Of a stretch of DNA of 64,000 nt, positions 35,421-44,340 are shown in pieces. The stretch comes from Hoeflea marina (GTDB lineage: Bacteria > Pseudomonadota > Alphaproteobacteria > Rhizobiales > Rhizobiaceae): contig NZ_QGTR01000001.1 of NCBI RefSeq assembly GCF_003182275.1, positions 658,130-722,129 on the forward strand, given 5' to 3'. A program made the position numbers and the translations under genes. Position 1 is the first letter of the stretch; every line of letters starts with the position of its first letter. Below the pieces are notes generated by a model. That model was given only the letters and a program-made list of their open reading frames with translations. It was not told the origin of the DNA and ran no database searches.

Positions 35421-38338
<2,918 letters not shown>

Positions 38339-38342
<4 letters not shown>

Positions 38343-38842
38343 ATGAAGACGACCTTTGTCGGCTTTTCGCAGAGAAAATGGCAGCTTCAGAGGATTTCAA
38401 GAACTGGGTGCTCAGTCAGACGACGTTTGGCCAGCACCGCTTTGCGTCCCGCGTCTTGAAAGACGCGCAAATTCTGGCCCGTCCGAAAGTCAAACCGGAG
38501 AATTGGTGGCGGCATTGGTACTGGCAAATTCCCGAACTGGAAAAGGAACATGAAACCGATATTTTCCTTGTCTTGAAGAATACCGATTCCGGCGAATACT
38601 TTGCTCTGCACATCGAGAACAAGCTGAATAGCAAGTTGAGGCCCGGCCAAGCGGCAAGTTATAAGCCAAGGTCACTGCATGTGGCCGCGTTCGACACCCG
38701 CCTGCCGCATCGTGAAGCCACCACCATTCTACTGGCTCCGGCTCGTCTCTTCCAAGCGTGCTCGGAAGACGTTGCATTGTTCGACAGCGCAATTTCACAC
38801 GAACAGGTCGCCGTCTTCATCAGCGAATTCGAAACCGGGTAG
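38339..38842 (+). CDS. PD-(D/E)XK nuclease-like hypothetical protein
   Basis: A 167-residue protein of unnamed family. The central pattern [11 protein letters not shown] ... [25 protein letters not shown] fits the PD-(D/E)XK nuclease core: an aspartate on the first strand (ETD), E-N-K on the second (E-X-K) and a following Q-X3-Y helix. The start is a GTG overlapping the uvrA stop (GTGA) with GGAGG seven bases upstream, so it is translated with uvrA. The gene is visibly poorer in GC than uvrA, suggesting recent arrival. Function (repair, or defence) is unproven. Confidence 0.75.
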
Positions 38843-38857
38843 CACGGAAGGCTTACA

Positions 38858-39245
38858 TTACCACACTGCCTGAACCGAGAACGCCGCGAATGCCGGATCA
38901 TTGCTAACCAGCACCATGCCCTCGATTTCCGCTTGTGCCGCAAGCAGCCGATCGAAGGGATCGCGGTGTTTACCTGGCATGAGGCCAGCAAGAACGGCAT
39001 GCGCCGCTGAGATGTCCACAACCGGATAGCCGAGTGACGTGAGGGTCGCCTCAAATGAAGTTGCGAAAGGACCGATATCGTTCCACTTACCAATCCGATA
39101 TTTGGTTGCCGCCTCAAAGGCGGAGACCGCACTTGCAAACACGTCATTGTCAGGATCGGCGATCAGGTCACGGGCGCGACTGGGAAGATGCGGATCGTCG
39201 AGAAGCCACCCTGCAAGCGCATGGGGTATCGAGCAACAGCCTCAT
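38858..39245 (-). pseudogene. Frameshifted VapC-like PIN-domain toxin
   Basis: A PIN-domain ribonuclease broken by one extra base. The ATG at 39245-39243 gives MRLLLDT, then the frame is lost; in the next frame the protein continues HALAGWLLDDPHLPSRARDL ... SAFEAATKYRIGKW ... DPFDRLLAAQAEIEG ... LVSNDPAF, which is a normal PIN domain with its acidic residues (LDT, E in SAFEA, DPFDR, ND). Four Gs at 39223-39226 on the plus strand replace the three needed. The last part can still be read as a 94-residue frame. Either a natural inactivation or a homopolymer sequencing error. The start shares one base with the antitoxin stop (TGATG). Confidence 0.82.
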
Positions 39246-39820
39246 CAGGACTTCTTAAAGTCGGATGTCTCACCCTGCCCTTTCTCGGCATCGAAGGAAC
39301 AGGAGCCCTCCCACGCCAGCAGTTCCGCTTCGGGCAAGGGATGGAAAAAGCTTTCGGGCAAGGTGAACTGGCCTTTGAGCGCACCGGGAATGCGCGGTCG
39401 TTTGGACTGGCTGGTCATTGGCACGACCCGGGCGACCGGCATTCCGTCCCGCGTAATGATGAATTCCCTGTTCGCACGGATCGATTCCGGCAATCCGTCG
39501 AGTTCGAGTGGACCGTCTTCCGCGAAGCCACCGCCGGACCAGGATTGCCGATTGATCCGATGACTGCGTCCAAGGTCGTCTTCATTCAGATTGCGCCCAG
39601 GAGAATGCGTCAGCCGATCGCCACCTTTCAGACCCTTAAGCAAACGCCCGAGCTCGCCCGGTCGGCGCGGATTGCGGGACTTGCCTTGTGGGGAGCCGGC
39701 AGAAACAAGTTTGGCTGTGGGCCCCCTGCCACGCGAAATCACCACCTCCTCACCGGCTTCCGCCCGGGCGACGAGCTGGTCGAGATCGGCCTTGGCCTGT
39801 TTGATTGTGACAGTAACCAT
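39245..39820 (-). CDS. Composite Phd/YefM-type antitoxin
   Basis: A 191-residue protein about twice the normal antitoxin size. Residues 1-42 (VTVTIKQAKADLDQLVARAEAGEEVVISRG) are a Phd/YefM DNA-binding N-terminus; residues about 105-175 (LDGLPESIRANREFIITRDGMPVARVVPM ... RPRIPGALKGQFTLPESFF ... PEAELLAWEG) repeat the end of such a domain plus the toxin-neutralising tail. The middle is unlike either. It looks like a fusion of two tandem antitoxins or a decayed duplication. Its stop overlaps the PIN toxin start, the usual antitoxin-toxin order. Confidence 0.72.
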   Translation of the reverse strand: MVTVTIKQAKADLDQLVARAEAGEEVVISRGRGPTAKLVSAGSPQGKSRNPRRPGELGRLLKGLKGGDRLTHSPGRNLNEDDLGRSHRINRQSWSGGGFAEDGPLELDGLPESIRANREFIITRDGMPVARVVPMTSQSKRPRIPGALKGQFTLPESFFHPLPEAELLAWEGSCSFDAEKGQGETSDFKKS

Positions 39821-39914
39821 GATCGAAATTTAGCCAGTTTCGAAGCCGGCATCAAGCAGACAGCGGAAGTCCCGTTCAGGAGCCGCAGCGTCCCCGCCTG
39901 CCCCTGAGCCGGCC

Positions 39915-40871
39915 CTACGGATCGCGTCCCGTCGGATGGCGGCCGATGCCGACGGCGGCGATCAGGCCGGAGGATGCCGAACCGGTCTTGTCGTCCTGGC
40001 AGTCGTTGCATTCGATCAATTGCACGCTGGCGATGTCGTGGATCTCGTTGTGCTGGTGGCTGGAATCAGTGACCCATCGGCCGGTCAGGGTCATGATGCA
40101 GCCCTTGGTGATGGCCTCGCCCTGCTCGTCGAAATCGCTCAGTTCGTCGGCGATCCAGCCGATGACGCCGCCGACTGCGGTGCCGGCCACGCCGCCCACC
40201 GCCGCGCCGACGAGGATGGCGATCGCCACCGCCAGCAGGCACAGGGCGGCGCCGATGCCGAAGGTCGCGAGACCCAGCGCCACGCAGATGGCGGCGCCGA
40301 TCGCGGCCCCCGCCACCGCGCCGGCCACCGACCCGGCGGCGCCGCCGACGGCGGCATAATCGCCGATGTGCGAGCCGATCTCGCAATGCAGGCAGGGCTG
40401 CTTGGTGGCAGGATCGACGGTGGTCTCGGCCGGTCCGGCGCCGGGCGCGTCGCGGGTGCGGATCTCCTGCACGTCGAGGCCGGCGATGATCGGGCTGAGC
40501 AGCGCCAGCATCGACCCGCCGAGATTGAAGGTCCAGTCGTTGTCATGGAAGGGCGGCACCCCGCTGTTCTTGCCGGCGCAGAGGATGCAGCCGCTCATGG
40601 TGATGGTGCTCGGGTCCTGCACATGCAGCCGGTCGAACCAGTTGACCGCCCAGCCGACGAAAAATCCCACCACCGCGCCGGCAAGGGCCGCGATCAGGAT
40701 GGCGGCAAAGGCCACGGCGAGCGCGCCGCCGACCAGGCCGGCAAGGCCGGCAGCTTCGAGAAAGGCGGCCAACCCGAAGGCTCCGGCGCCGCCGAAGACC
40801 CAGCCCAGAACCCGTCCGACGGCGGCATCGTTGTCGCCGGCGCCGTCATGCTCGGTGTCGCAGCCAGCCAT
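39915..40871 (-). CDS. Unrecognised Gly/Ala-rich membrane protein with cysteine pairs (PAAR-like layout)
   Basis: A 318-residue protein I cannot assign. It has a hydrophobic block at about residues 25-80 (ending VVGFFVGWAVNWFDRLH), a soluble segment TITMSGCILCAGKNSGVPPFHDNDWTFN and PCLHCEIGSHIGDYAAVGG, a second glycine-zipper-like hydrophobic block (about 175-245), and a C-terminal module ITKGCIMTLTGRWVTDSSHQHNEIHDIASVQLIECNDC. Cysteine pairs C-X2-C recur. The alternation of hydrophobic hairpins and short C/H-rich segments recalls PAAR-like or polymorphic-toxin carrier proteins, but that is a guess. It starts one base after the upstream gene stops (TGA-G-ATG). Confidence 0.6.
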   Translation of the reverse strand: MAGCDTEHDGAGDNDAAVGRVLGWVFGGAGAFGLAAFLEAAGLAGLVGGALAVAFAAILIAALAGAVVGFFVGWAVNWFDRLHVQDPSTITMSGCILCAGKNSGVPPFHDNDWTFNLGGSMLALLSPIIAGLDVQEIRTRDAPGAGPAETTVDPATKQPCLHCEIGSHIGDYAAVGGAAGSVAGAVAGAAIGAAICVALGLATFGIGAALCLLAVAIAILVGAAVGGVAGTAVGGVIGWIADELSDFDEQGEAITKGCIMTLTGRWVTDSSHQHNEIHDIASVQLIECNDCQDDKTGSASSGLIAAVGIGRHPTGRDP

Positions 40872-40872
40872 C

Positions 40873-42069
40873 TCAGCCTCCCGTGGTGACGGTCAGGGTG
40901 ACACCGCCGCTGGGCACTCCACCCTGCCAGACATTGACGTTGAAATGTCCGTCCGGCCCGGCGTCGTCCGGCGCATCGACCTCGAGCAGAACGTCGCGAT
41001 AGGCCTCTCCCGGCTGGAAAACGAAGCTTGACGGCGTCACCCGGGCGTTCCACAGCGGGCCCACGCCGGTGAACGCGGTCATGGGATCGAAATCCTTGCC
41101 GGTCTTGTCCTCGAACCGGTAGGAATCGACCTCGATGCGCACGAGGTGGCAGTCGGTCCGGTCGGTGCGCGGGTCGCGGGCGCGGCGGGCATTGGAGCGC
41201 CGGCGGATCCAGGCGTAGACCGATTCCACCAGCAGTCCGAGCACTGCGCCCGCCGCATAGCCCACCGCCATCATCGCCAGGCCCCGCAGCGGCACCGCCA
41301 GTGCGGTCGTGGGCTGGGCCATGTCGGCGTGGCTCCCGCCGGCATGGGTCGCCAGCAGGGCCGCCACCGCGCCGATCACCGCCCAGCCGAGAAACACCCG
41401 GTGCGGCCTGAGCCAGGGGCCGCCGCCCTCCTCCACCTTCGGACAGTCACCGGGATAGCGGTTGAAGATGCGGACGTCGCGCGCCACCGGCGACTGCGCG
41501 GCGTAGACCTGGGTGTTGTTCCAGCCGCGGTTGTTGGAGGGATTGCCATCGTCGGGATGGCTGAGCTCGACCTCGATGCAGTAGTGGCCGGGCGTGTCCG
41601 GCGTGGTCCATTTCGTCGTCACCACATCCGTCCCCGGCCAGACCGGCACGTTTGCGGCGGCCACGGCGATGAGGTGCCTGACCTGGCCGCCGGCGCCGAA
41701 CTCGATCCAGCGGATGTCGACCGCCGTGCCGTTGGCTGGCTTGTCGCGGGAGGAATTGTGCACCGTCACCTCGACATCGTAGGTCGTGCCGACTGTCAGA
41801 TTGTAGGTGTACTGCTCGACGCCGTTGAGAAAGATCCGCACATCCGGATTGTCCCAGGTGACCGGCTTGCCGAGCTGCATCAGCAGGAACTGGTCATAGA
41901 TGCAGGGATCAGGCTTGCGGGCGATGTGCCCAGGGATGACGACGCAGGGATCGCCCTCCGGCGTCTTTTCGCGCTCGAGGATCTCCCAGATCCTGCATAG
42001 GACGCAGCCGGGCCAGCGGCGCTTTGCCGCCACCGCGCCGGAGTCCTTCCTTCCGCCACAACATCCCAT
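40873..42069 (-). CDS. Unrecognised membrane protein with two Ig-like (CARDB-type) domains
   Basis: A 398-residue protein beginning MGCCGGRKDSG, with GGAGG six bases upstream of that ATG. An N-terminal cysteine-rich part (CCGG, CVLCRIW, DPC) leads to a beta-sandwich of CARDB type: VRIFLNGVEQYTYNLTVGTTYDVEVTVHNSS ... HYCIEVELSHPDDGNPSNNRGWNNTQV. Two membrane helices follow (VFLGWAVIGAVAALLATHAG; LAMMAVGYAAGAVLGLLVESVYAW), then an R-rich loop and a second beta domain ending HFNVNVWQGGVPSGGVTLTVTTGG. It is the first gene of a tight pair with the 318-residue protein. No signal peptide is seen. The N-terminal GCC could be a lipid-attachment or metal site. Confidence 0.62.
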   Translation of the reverse strand: MGCCGGRKDSGAVAAKRRWPGCVLCRIWEILEREKTPEGDPCVVIPGHIARKPDPCIYDQFLLMQLGKPVTWDNPDVRIFLNGVEQYTYNLTVGTTYDVEVTVHNSSRDKPANGTAVDIRWIEFGAGGQVRHLIAVAAANVPVWPGTDVVTTKWTTPDTPGHYCIEVELSHPDDGNPSNNRGWNNTQVYAAQSPVARDVRIFNRYPGDCPKVEEGGGPWLRPHRVFLGWAVIGAVAALLATHAGGSHADMAQPTTALAVPLRGLAMMAVGYAAGAVLGLLVESVYAWIRRRSNARRARDPRTDRTDCHLVRIEVDSYRFEDKTGKDFDPMTAFTGVGPLWNARVTPSSFVFQPGEAYRDVLLEVDAPDDAGPDGHFNVNVWQGGVPSGGVTLTVTTGG

Positions 42070-42205
42070 GATCGACCTCCGCGCCGGGGGATGAGAAAGC
42101 CGAATGCCATTTGCGGCCGCCAATCGTTCGACGGGCCTTGATCCTGACATCGTCCGGCATCAGTCTGCGCAAAGCGGGTGGCGGATTCGCCTCCGTCCGG
42201 CGATT

Positions 42206-42311
42206 GCTAAATCACATCGCGGGAATTCGGATTCACGCGATGTGCTTTAGCTTTTTACAAATATGCATGTCGTGATGCCGAAACCGCTGCACACTTTCGG
42301 GCGACATGCAT
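42206..42311. repeat. Compound palindromic intergenic element
   Basis: Two hairpins in series. The first: GCTAAA-t-CACATCGCG (42206-42221) pairing with CGCGATGTG-c-TTTAGC (42236-42251), one mismatch, followed by TTTTT. The second: ATGCATGTCG (42263-42272) with CGACATGCAT (42302-42311), and an inner CCGAAA / TTTCGG pair. From memory, an element of this composition (GCATGTCGT...CCGAAACCG...GACATGCA) is repeated many times in rhizobial genomes. It ends exactly at the stop codon of the small gene on the minus strand and may act as its terminator. Confidence 0.8.
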
Positions 42312-42460
42312 TAGAAACGTCTCCGCCGGAAAACCCTTGCAAGCCGACGCCGTGCAAGAAATGCCACAACCACCACGACCAGAAGCAGGATATAGAGAGC
42401 CTCGGTCGCGCCGCTGCCGCCATCTGGAGAAATGCCGAAAATTCGCTCGATGAAATCCAC
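42311..42460 (-). CDS. Small single-helix basic-tailed membrane protein, 49 residues
   Basis: A 49-residue frame starting at GTG 42460 with GGAGG five bases upstream. Sequence layout: short polar start MDFIERIFGISPDGGSGATE, one helix ALYILLLVVVVVAFLA and a strongly basic tail RRRLARVFRRRRF. No family is recognised. The good ribosome site and the palindromic element right at its end support a real gene. An ATG 33 codons upstream would give a longer, less plausible product. Confidence 0.55.
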   Translation of the reverse strand: MDFIERIFGISPDGGSGATEALYILLLVVVVVAFLARRRLARVFRRRRF

Positions 42461-42613
42461 GGGACCCTCCGCGCACAAGAAACACCAAGTATCGATGAAA
42501 ATATACAATAGTTTTACTTGCTTTTCAATATGAACAACGCGCATGGATGGACACTTCAATTCATTGCAGGCAAATCACTGAAAAATACACGTGAAAACAA
42601 TGGAGAGATTGGA

Positions 42614-43414
42614 ATGATCAAATCCGCCACCATCCGCGCCGGCATTGGCGGCTGGACCTTCGATGCCTGGGAGGGCACGTTCTATCCCGATGATCTGCCA
42701 AAGAAGCGGCAGCTCGAATACGCCTCGTCAAAGCTCGCCACCATCGAGGTCAACGGCACCTACTACCGCGGCCAGACGCCGGCGACGTTTGCCAAATGGG
42801 CCGAGGAGAGCCCCGACGGCTTCGTCTTCGCCATCAAGGGCAACCGCTTCGTCACCAACAAGAAGGTGCTGGCCGAGGCCGGCGAATCCATGGGCAAGTT
42901 CTTTGCGCAAGGCATAGAGGAACTGGGTCCGAAACTCGGGCCGATCGTCTGGCAGTTCGCGCCGACCAAGAAGTTCGAGCCCGAGGATTTCGAGGGCTTT
43001 CTCAAGCTTCTGCCGGAAACCCATGCCGGGCTGAAACTGCGCCACGTGCTGGAGGTCCGCAACGACAGTTTTTTCACCCCGGAGTTTCCGCCGCTGGCGC
43101 GCAAATACAACGCCGCCATCTGCTACGCGCACCATCACGACTATCCCGAGATCGCCGACGTGACCGCCGACTTCGTCTATGGCCGCCTGCAGAAGGGCGA
43201 TGACGACATCGCCACCGCCTATTCCGAGTCCGATCTCGATGCCTGGGCCAGGCGGGCGAAGCTCTGGGCCGAGGGCGGCCAGCCGGACGACCTGCCGCTC
43301 GCCGAGCCGGACCACAAGCCGAAGGCCGAGCCGCGCGACGTCTTCCTCTACATCATCCACGAAGGCAAGATCCGCGCGCCACAGGGCGCCATAGCCCTGC
43401 AGGAACGGGTGTGA
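42614..43414 (+). CDS. DUF72 domain protein (YecE family)
   Basis: A 266-residue TIM-barrel protein of the DUF72/YecE family. Signatures are IRAGIGGWTFDAWEGTFYPDDLPKKRQLEYASSKLATIEVNGTYY at the start, FVFAIKGNRFVTN, and LRHVLEVRNDSFF. Function of the family is unknown. GGAGAG lies eight bases upstream of the ATG at 42614. The last four bases overlap the PfkB kinase start (GTGA), so the two are coupled. Confidence 0.92.
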   Translation: MIKSATIRAGIGGWTFDAWEGTFYPDDLPKKRQLEYASSKLATIEVNGTYYRGQTPATFAKWAEESPDGFVFAIKGNRFVTNKKVLAEAGESMGKFFAQGIEELGPKLGPIVWQFAPTKKFEPEDFEGFLKLLPETHAGLKLRHVLEVRNDSFFTPEFPPLARKYNAAICYAHHHDYPEIADVTADFVYGRLQKGDDDIATAYSESDLDAWARRAKLWAEGGQPDDLPLAEPDHKPKAEPRDVFLYIIHEGKIRAPQGAIALQERV

Positions 43415-44340
43415 GCGCGTCCAAGACATCTCCCGTGCCCCGAACAATCCTCTGCGTCGGCGCGCTCACCATGGACACCATTTTCCGGCTGGAAACCCTG
43501 CCGCTGACGGCCGGAAAATTCATCCCGCTTGACGCCGTCGAGGTGGCCGAGGGCATGGCCAGCGCGCAGGCGGCGAGCATTGTCCGGCTCGGCGGATCGG
43601 CACGGCTGTGGGCCTCGGCGGGCGACGATGTCATCGGCGACCGGCTGGTCGCGGAACTCTCCGCGGAGGGCGTCGACTGCCGCTCGGTGCGACGCGTCGC
43701 CGGCACCCGCTCGGCCTTTTCATCGATCTTCGTGGACATGGCGGGCGAGCGCATCATCGTGCCGCATTATGACCCTGCGCTGCGGGCGGCGCCGGACGCC
43801 CTGCCCGATCTCGACGGTGTCGATGTTGTCAGCGTCGATGCCCGCTGGCCGGAGGCCGCCGAAATGGCGCTGCGCGAGGCCTCCGCGCGCGGCATCCCCG
43901 GTGTGCTCGATGCGGACGTCGCGGCGGTGGCCGTGCTCGACCGTCTCTGCCCGCTGGCCTCGCACATCGTCGCATCGGAACCCGCGTGCCGGCTCCTCAC
44001 CGGTGCGGACGATCCTGCGGATGGCTTGAAGAACCTCGCATCCCGCCATCCGGGTTTTGTCGCCGTCACCGCCGGAGAAAGGGGCTGCTTCTGGCATGAC
44101 CGCCGCGAGCGGACCGTCCGCCATCAGCCGGCGCCGATGATCACGGCAATCGACACGCTGGCGGCCGGCGATGTGTTTCACGGCGCCTTCGCTCTGGGGC
44201 TCGCCGAGGGTCTGGAAACTGCTGAACTGATCCGCCGGGCCTCGGCTGCGGCGGCCATCAAATGCACCCGCTTCGGCGGCAGGCTCGGTGCGCCCAGCCG
44301 CGCCGAACTTGACGCCTTCCTGGCGGCGACCGGCATCTAG
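43411..44340 (+). CDS. PfkB family carbohydrate kinase
   Basis: A 309-residue ribokinase-fold sugar kinase. N-terminal ILCVGALTMDTIFRLETLP and the substrate stretch with ASAQAASIVRLGGSARLWASAGDD are typical. The C-terminal signature reads DTLAAGDVFHGAFALGLAEG: the DTxGAGD motif has alanine in place of the first glycine of the anion hole, with the catalytic Asp kept. Start GTG overlaps the DUF72 stop. The sugar is unknown; sulfofructose or tagatose-like kinases are close in length. Confidence 0.88.
   Translation: MSASKTSPVPRTILCVGALTMDTIFRLETLPLTAGKFIPLDAVEVAEGMASAQAASIVRLGGSARLWASAGDDVIGDRLVAELSAEGVDCRSVRRVAGTRSAFSSIFVDMAGERIIVPHYDPALRAAPDALPDLDGVDVVSVDARWPEAAEMALREASARGIPGVLDADVAAVAVLDRLCPLASHIVASEPACRLLTGADDPADGLKNLASRHPGFVAVTAGERGCFWHDRRERTVRHQPAPMITAIDTLAAGDVFHGAFALGLAEGLETAELIRRASAAAAIKCTRFGGRLGAPSRAELDAFLAATGI

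What the first reader, a model, noticed from the sequence alone, without database searches (positions are those of the whole stretch)
39915..42069. Unrecognised two-gene membrane module with Ig-like and C/H-rich segments
Two adjacent genes (one-base gap) encode a CARDB-type Ig/two-helix protein starting MGCC and a Gly/Ala-rich protein with glycine-zipper hairpins, repeated C-X2-C and a GRWVTDSSHQHNEIHDI module. Neither matches a family I know. The combination suggests a surface or envelope complex, possibly PAAR-like delivery or a polymorphic system, in an accessory region.
Basis: inference. Interest (0 to 1): 0.6.

Follow-up and report, generated by a model that had tools for sequence, protein, structure and literature searches.

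The report
Uncharacterised mobile two-gene membrane module
Two adjacent bacterial genes, found as a linked pair in scattered species of many phyla, appear to encode a membrane protein with a probable metal site and its Ig-like partner; no catalogued family we checked covers them and their job is unknown.

Summary
Genes A (40873-42069, 398 aa) and B (39915-40871, 318 aa), minus strand, lie one base apart. Neither reaches a Pfam or NCBIfam cut-off. The pair is conserved: a scan with A gave 39 loci in nine phyla (by record title), each with a B homologue at A, two of them incomplete. A search with B in 146 genomes of the Mesorhizobium genus gave 20 intact copies, 20 of 20 beside A, and one wreck without A. 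It is an insertion between uvrA and a DUF72 gene (names recalled): 12 of 12 same-genus genomes fetched (of 17) lack it there.

A holds a CARDB-type Ig domain and a second Ig-like domain. B is modelled as an OB-fold whose usual strand 3-4 helix is replaced by a membrane hairpin. Eight D/E/H residues are invariant in 31 of 31 aligned B proteins; I read them as a metal site. Proteins without the hairpins share B's motifs, so its domain belongs to a wider group.

No third gene lies beside the pair across phyla, so PAAR delivery or a toxin-immunity system is not supported. Most likely: a membrane metalloprotein with an obligate Ig-like partner. Role unknown.

The parts
40873..42069 (-). Gene A, 398 aa, upstream gene of the pair (MGCC start)
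   Evidence: homologues in L006 and L017-L055
41497..41871 (-). A residues 67-191: CARDB-type Ig domain
   Evidence: model m5e4c386751d5; 3idu_B Z 11.7, rmsd 3.2, 104 aligned
41182..41406 (-). A residues 222-296: two hydrophobic helices, window clade only (8 of 31 rows)
40888..41145 (-). A residues 309-394: second, C-terminal Ig-like domain (NEW3/NPCBM_assoc or Fn3-like in some relatives)
   Evidence: strands; NPCBM_assoc in 14 and fn3_5 in 3 of 31 A rows, not in the window protein
39915..40871 (-). Gene B, 318 aa, downstream gene of the pair
   Evidence: homologue at A in 39 of 39 loci, two incomplete
40632..40826 (-). B residues 16-80: membrane hairpin 1
   Evidence: helices; hydrophobic in 30 of 31 rows, not L024 at the threshold used
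40377..40628 (-). B residues 82-165: OB-fold strands 1-3
40536..40544 (-). Motif 1: D110-N-D112, both Asp invariant in 31 of 31 rows
40380..40388 (-). Motif 2: H162-C-E164, His and Glu invariant in 31 of 31 rows
40140..40367 (-). B residues 169-244: membrane hairpin 2, inserted between OB strands 3 and 4
   Evidence: hydrophobic in 31 of 31 rows
40008..40100 (-). B residues 258-288: OB-fold strands 4-5
40038..40082 (-). Motif 3: G264..D269..H272..E276-x-H278 (GRWVTDSSHQHNEIH); the five named residues invariant in 31 of 31 rows
38343..42613 (.). Accessory stretch between uvrA and the DUF72 gene (names recalled) that holds the pair and a PIN/Phd pair
   Evidence: 12 of 12 fetched same-genus genomes (of 17) keep uvrA beside DUF72 without A or B at tblastn E 1e-10

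Best explanation
A and B are the two subunits of one obligate, horizontally mobile membrane complex. B is held in the membrane by two helical hairpins and carries an OB-fold domain; the second hairpin stands where an OB-fold normally has the helix between strands 3 and 4. On that domain eight invariant acidic and histidine residues (D110, D112, H162, E164, D269, H272, E276, H278) form a metal-binding centre, probably catalytic, otherwise sensing. A, with membrane helices of its own in most rows, presents two Ig-like domains that bind B and/or its substrate. Shown: genetic linkage, co-inheritance, codon-level constraint, motif conservation, accessory insertion. Predicted by model: the folds. 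Inferred: complex formation, metal binding, catalysis or sensing, transfer between lineages. The biological role is open.
For: Linkage: a scan with A found 39 loci, 39 of 39 with a B homologue (L055 truncated, L037's B cut by the contig end). A search with B found 20 intact copies in 146 genomes of the Mesorhizobium genus, 20 of 20 beside A, and one wreck without A. The gap is -1 to 17 nt in 38 of 39 pairs measured. A and B distance matrices agree: Mantel r 0.867, 0 of 9999 permutations as high, 27 pairs; r 0.778 over 19 pairs without the window clade, again 0. Membrane: B hydrophobic in the second region in 31 of 31 rows and in the first in 30; A has an N-terminal hydrophobic stretch in 15 of 23 rows outside the window clade and an internal one in 7 of 8 inside it. 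Fold: B model pLDDT 81.4, pTM 0.76; OB-fold matches Z 8.7 (3f2b, rmsd 3.6, 92 aligned) and 8.6 (4apv, rmsd 3.2, 84 aligned). A's CARDB domain Z 11.7. Site: 8 of 11 invariant residues other than Met1 are D, E or H, binomial p 1.1e-5. L125 and L127, which lack the hairpins, keep D-x-D and D..H..E-x-H in alignment, and in L125 a short span stands in place of hairpin 2.
Against: No coordinates were available, so that the eight residues meet in space is not shown. Foldseek against PDB gave no B hit below E 0.001 (best 0.15), and Z near 8 can be a common arrangement (note). A's model is weak (pLDDT 71.7, pTM 0.50). Metal, substrate and partner contact were not tested. The invariant set has no Lys or Arg. 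The binomial ignores relatedness among rows. In L127 the second motif lacks the His. 8 of 23 A rows outside the window clade (one of them cut by a contig end) and L022 inside it show no hydrophobic segment at the threshold used. The B profile was seeded from loci of the same set, and the B search covers one genus, some of whose genomes are also among the 39 loci.
Confidence: 0.5

Rival explanations
1. A two-gene stress or anti-phage module: the OB domain senses a ligand and B's glycine-rich hairpins permeabilise the cell's own membrane, with A as regulator.
For: Patchy distribution, and a junction that in one relative holds a PIN/Phd pair instead; glycine-rich hairpins; no secretion or immunity partner found beside it.
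Against: No PADLOC match for the window proteins; of 31 B rows one hits LeoB at E 1.6e-5. PADLOC models were matched by at most 4 of 146 neighbouring ORFs, PglW and PD-T4-6 at the top, beside 3 Pfam protein kinases. Eight of the invariant residues lie in the OB domain, none in the second hairpin.
Confidence: 0.2
2. A metal or ion transporter or channel: the hairpins of several B copies form the path and the OB site gates it or loads the ion.
For: Two hairpins per B, conserved Gly48 and Gly226 and Cys196 in or beside them, and a candidate metal site on the attached domain.
Against: The second hairpin has no Lys, Arg, Asp or Glu in its middle that is conserved across rows. Proteins that share the motif without hairpins exist, so the site serves a purpose without a pore.
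Confidence: 0.15
3. A secreted two-component toxin or contact-dependent killer like the glycine-zipper bacteriocin Cdz, or an injected PAAR-type effector.
For: Glycine-rich hydrophobic hairpins and two linked proteins in an alphaproteobacterium; Cdz is a two-protein glycine-zipper system of Caulobacter (PMC5380434, passages).
Against: [quoted passage not shown] here 318 and 398 aa, no third family beside the pair across phyla, ABC_tran in 2 of 146 neighbours, no PAAR match in 31 B rows.
Confidence: 0.08

Closest known systems
CARDB domain (PF1109 CARDB of Pyrococcus furiosus, PDB 3idu and 2kl6)
   Same: A residues 67-191 superpose: 3idu_B Z 11.7, rmsd 3.2, 104 aligned; 2kl6 Z 11.2.
   Different: No Pfam CARDB match in any of 31 A rows at E 0.01; A has a fixed partner gene B.
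NEW3 / NPCBM_assoc and Fn3-like domains (Pfam PF10633, PF06280)
   Same: 14 and 3 of 31 A rows match, best E 1.6e-6 and 6.3e-7.
   Different: The window protein itself does not match; no enzyme domain is attached.
OB-fold proteins: PriB, SSB, PolC OB domain
   Same: Strand order of B's model; Z 8.6 to 4apv and 8.7 to 3f2b.
   Different: B has a membrane hairpin in place of the strand 3-4 helix and an invariant D/E/H set; no PDB sequence match of note.
Uncharacterised proteins that share B's motif (L122-L127)
   Same: DGD and D..H..E-x-H type motifs; hhalign probability 96.3 (L125, 32 columns) and 91.3 (L127, 30 columns).
   Different: No membrane hairpin seen in the motif domain; matched by the B profile only around motif 3, or hairpin end to motif 3 in L127.
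Cdz glycine-zipper bacteriocin of Caulobacter crescentus (PMC5380434, passages)
   Same: Two linked glycine-rich hydrophobic proteins in Alphaproteobacteria.
   Different: Proteins of 84 and 86 aa, type I secretion, immunity gene; none of these here.

Membership tests
CARDB domain | CARDB fold | tested here: met
   AlphaFold model plus VIA top hits 3idu_B Z 11.7 and 2kl6 Z 11.2
CARDB domain | Match to the Pfam CARDB profile | tested here: not met
   0 of 31 A rows at E 0.01
NEW3 / NPCBM_assoc domain | Match to PF10633 | tested here: inconclusive
   14 of 31 A rows match at E 0.01, best 1.6e-6; the window protein does not
OB-fold | Five-strand OB barrel | tested here: met
   Model; VIA Z 8.7 and 8.6 to OB domains, all top rows shown are OB-containing chains; Foldseek E only 0.15, so moderate support
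Metal-binding enzyme | Liganding residues that meet at one site; bound metal | not testable with these tools
   Eight invariant D/E/H; no coordinates are given by the prediction tool
PAAR protein | PAAR domain | tested here: not met
   No Pfam PAAR match in 31 B rows at E 0.01
Polymorphic toxin / contact-dependent system | Variable C-terminal toxin with an adjacent immunity gene | tested here: not met
   C-termini conserved; no third family beside the pair across phyla
Cdz glycine-zipper bacteriocin | Two proteins of about 85 aa with type I secretion and immunity genes | tested here: not met
   318 and 398 aa; no recurrent third gene; ABC_tran in 2 of 146 neighbours
Known anti-phage defence system | Match to a PADLOC model | tested here: not met
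   P0001 and P0002: none at E 1. Of 31 B rows one hits LeoB, E 1.6e-5; A rows other than P0002 were not scanned

The most novel reading that the evidence does not exclude
A previously undescribed cross-phylum mobile system: an OB-fold metalloenzyme embedded in the membrane, its canonical strand 3-4 helix turned into a transmembrane hairpin, that works only together with a dedicated two-Ig-domain partner and is the membrane branch of an uncharacterised superfamily also found in soluble and secreted proteins.
Probability: 0.35. Interest if true: 0.72.

Novelty: categorically new. Interest (0 to 1): 0.5.

Why it matters
It defines two linked protein families, spread over nine phyla by record title, that the curated libraries consulted here do not cover at family level. 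It gives eight residues to mutate and a clear partner to test. The layout, an OB-fold barrel whose connecting helix has become a membrane hairpin, is unusual as far as I know (recalled, not searched exhaustively), and it ties a membrane system to soluble and secreted-looking proteins with the same motif.

Tried and rejected
PAAR, polymorphic toxin and Cdz-type bacteriocin: see Membership tests. N-terminal MGCC as a lipobox: rejected, no signal region can precede it (sequence). Plasmid or phage origin: in plasmids no hit for P0001, P0002 and two other A proteins, L033 and L024; in phages only L033's A was tried, no hit; in viral contigs no confirmed relative for P0001, P0002, A2 and A4, and A3 could not be used. 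B's model had no viral structure hit below E 0.001. RNA, tRNA or expression signals: no Rfam hit in 38000-44000, no tRNA in the window, one promoter-like site about 430 bp upstream of A (0.3 expected) and 3 terminator-like sites (2.0 expected). Sequence matches to PDB: none below E 0.04.

Matches dropped: L005 (E 9.7e-5, a TGA inside), L008-L010 (a short C-terminal stretch of A in long ORFs), L013 (a glycine-rich protein of another kind), L014, and L015 (a TGA inside). L013 and L014 were read; L008-L010 and L015 were dropped on the table alone.

Papers: listings showed no description of this pair; two searches found no paper. The strings NEIHP, WNEIHP and VTWDNPD gave 5 papers, none on this. 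I saw passages of PMC7016017 (wolframin OB-fold; not related) and PMC5380434. Only an open-licence library was searched and the lists were capped, so absence from print is not shown.

The empty-site check used 12 of 17 same-genus genomes. Neighbouring ORFs come from my own simple gene caller, 146 of 162 listed (L036 and L048 left out), and only 25 of 140 Pfam and 25 of 71 PADLOC families were shown. Names of window genes other than PIN and Phd (uvrA, DUF72, SDR and so on) are recalled from their sequence, from no call.

Full report
What is there. The window proteins reach no Pfam or NCBIfam cut-off (best for A is DUF2484 at 16.9 bits against a cut-off of 25) and match no PADLOC model. PHROGs, which has no cut-offs, gave weak hits, for B best E 6.8e-5 to a tail-associated lysin over the second hydrophobic region. 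31 aligned B proteins and 31 aligned A proteins gave no NCBIfam match at E 0.001. In Pfam at E 0.01, 14 of 31 A rows matched NPCBM_assoc and 3 fn3_5, one each DUF2484 and TMEM100; B rows matched six models in 1 or 2 members each, C19orf12, glycine-zipper, Shadoo and a holin.

Scans. Among 60 relatives (B) and 17 same-genus genomes (A) only the window's own copy was found. Of 397 genomes of the order, A matched the window, G123 (71%), G141 (partly, 40%) and a match that I dropped; the B neighbours are 79% and 30% identical. Of 385 genomes of the class, A1 matched only the window and one genome with matches that I dropped. Of 398 genomes of the phylum, A2 matched the window, G141, G265 (a broken copy) and three genomes that I dropped. 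So the pair is rare.

A pair? A scan of the genome-contig collection with two peptide patterns from A gave 69 stretches, 39 of them confirmed as distinct loci, L017-L055. By record title they fall in Pseudomonadota, Actinomycetota, Acidobacteriota, Verrucomicrobiota, Bacteroidota, Cyanobacteriota, Planctomycetota, Chloroflexota and Myxococcota; many are metagenome bins, where stray contigs are possible. A profile of B found a homologue at A in 39 of 39. L055 holds only truncated pieces of A and B, L037's B runs off the contig, L040's A is cut by the contig start, and L050 has two tandem pairs. The profile was seeded from loci of the same set, so a search that starts from B is the better test. 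In 146 genomes of G141's genus (Mesorhizobium, since G141's contig matches L033's record in length and place) it gave 21 genomes: 20 with an intact B, each with A directly upstream, and G265, whose B is in two pieces and where no A was found. Some of these genomes are also among the 39 loci. In 13 genomes reached through the loci, the number of B matches was the number already known to lie in pairs. Further B searches hit only their centre in 246 genomes of the Mycolicibacterium genome's class, and only the centre over its length in 159 and 146 genomes of the phyla of L023 (Acidobacteriota) and L021 (Cyanobacteriota), besides partial hits described below.

Coupling. With start codons chosen by a fixed rule, the A-B gap is -1 to 17 nt in 38 of 39 pairs measured; the exception is L053, 51 nt, where A's last domain lies in another frame. 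Distances among A and among B agree (Mantel r 0.867, 0 of 9999 permutations as high, 27 pairs; 0.778 over 19 pairs without the window clade, again 0). Between the window and G123 most differences fall at third codon positions for B (113 of 206) and about half for A (150 of 308).

Mobility. In 12 of 12 fetched same-genus genomes (of 17) uvrA and the DUF72 gene (recalled names) are neighbours, 59 to 4064 bp apart, with no A or B in the fetched stretch; L085 has a PIN/Phd pair there, 43% and 36% identical to the window's. The A tree puts the window beside Pseudolabrys and Aurantimonas (95/92) and holds cyanobacterial, planctomycete and chloroflexi rows in the same group of eight (100/100). In L021 the pair has 55.9% GC in flanks of 41.6%; most other pairs are close to their flanks. 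This fits transfer but, given bins and long branches, does not prove it. Record searches found no plasmid or phage copy with the queries tried.

Anatomy of B. The model (31-row alignment; pLDDT 81.4, pTM 0.76) has helices 16-41 and 49-80, strands 82-101, 113-126 and 159-165, helices 169-203 and 207-244, and strands 258-269 and 274-288. Foldseek's best PDB hits are OB-fold proteins at poor E-values (0.15 and up); VIA gives Z 8.7 to PolC's OB domain and 8.6 to PriB. So read, the second hairpin stands where OB-folds carry the helix between strands 3 and 4. Twelve columns are invariant; without Met1, 8 of 11 are D, E or H (p 1.1e-5 by a binomial that ignores relatedness). They lie just before strand 2 (D110, D112), in strand 3 (H162, E164) and around the strand 4-5 turn (D269, H272, E276, H278). 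From memory these regions frame the usual OB ligand face; that the residues meet is inference.

Anatomy of A. The model is weaker (pLDDT 71.7, pTM 0.50), but residues 67-191 match CARDB structures at Z 11.7. A second Ig-like domain ends the protein. The window clade (8 of 31) has an internal hydrophobic segment, above threshold in 7 of 8; of the other 23 rows 15 have an N-terminal hydrophobic stretch above threshold. In 19 of 20 rows with such a stretch at a lower threshold (one of them L022 of the window clade) more Lys/Arg follow it than precede it, L052 being the exception. That count sets 25 residues after the helix against often only a few before it, so it is a hint, not a measurement, that the Ig domains face the cytoplasm.

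Wider family. In some searches the B profile also made five partial hits in five other genomes' worth of rows, L122-L127 being the loci: two in Acidobacteriota (L122, L123) and four in three cyanobacterial-phylum genomes (L124-L127), matched in the stretch from the end of hairpin 2 to just past motif 3. L124-L126 carry DGD, HCE and GRWT(Y/F)D.FH.GW.EIHP; L127 looks like a lipoprotein; L123 is a 647-aa frame; L122 is a large repeat protein with GRWVADMHQSWNELHP. hhalign with the B profile gives 96.3 for L125 (32 columns) and 91.3 for L127 (30 columns). In an alignment of L125 and L127 with five B proteins, two Asp of motif 1 and G, D, H, E, H of motif 3 are invariant. I did not look for an A gene beside L122-L127 beyond their short loci. 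B's domain is thus probably the membrane form of a broader group, which lowers the claim that its domain is unique and leaves the side of the membrane open.

Context. Single-linkage clustering of 995 flanking ORFs gave A and B in 32 loci each. The next largest cluster, nine loci including the window's SDR gene (recalled name), does cross phyla but lies 4 to 11 kb from the pair at varying places; the others printed are antisense frames of A or B, Mesorhizobium synteny or clusters away from the pair, and I did not follow all of them. Over 146 neighbouring ORFs of 20 loci no Pfam family was matched more than 3 times (Pkinase), and the list includes single hits such as PGK, glutamine synthetase and chorismate synthase.

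Verdict. A real, uncharacterised two-gene membrane module, accessory and probably mobile. I commit to a membrane metalloprotein with an Ig-like partner at 0.5; its role is unknown. I rate it categorically new because no known kind of system that I considered fits, with the caveat that an unnamed database family or a paper outside the open library could exist.

Noticed in passing
window 38858-39820 (-): A PIN-domain ORF of 94 aa that matches PIN positions 32-116 only, so its N-terminal part is not in this ORF, beside a 191-aa protein with two Phd/YefM stretches; L085 has a similar pair at the same junction.
   Followed up: partly
window 38343-42613: The uvrA-DUF72 junction looks like an insertion hotspot: 59 to 4064 bp between the two genes in 12 relatives.
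   Followed up: partly
window 38339-38842 (+): Uncharacterised 167-aa protein that overlaps the end of uvrA by four bases; weak PADLOC PDC-S26 match (E 0.0098) and a D..IENK segment that recalls restriction-type nucleases (recalled, not tested).
   Followed up: no
L122-L127: Proteins without membrane hairpins in the motif domain (soluble, lipoprotein-like, large repeat protein) that share B's DGD and EIHP-type motifs.
   Followed up: partly
L050 7378-12311: Mycolicibacterium stellerae carries two divergent A-B pairs in tandem.
   Followed up: no
L012, L106, L107 (genome G265): A decayed Mesorhizobium copy: B in two pieces and no A found, beside the same kind of upstream gene as the intact copy in G141.
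   Followed up: yes
L055 9839-10857: Myxococcales bin with only an N-terminal piece of A running into the later part of B in another frame.
   Followed up: no
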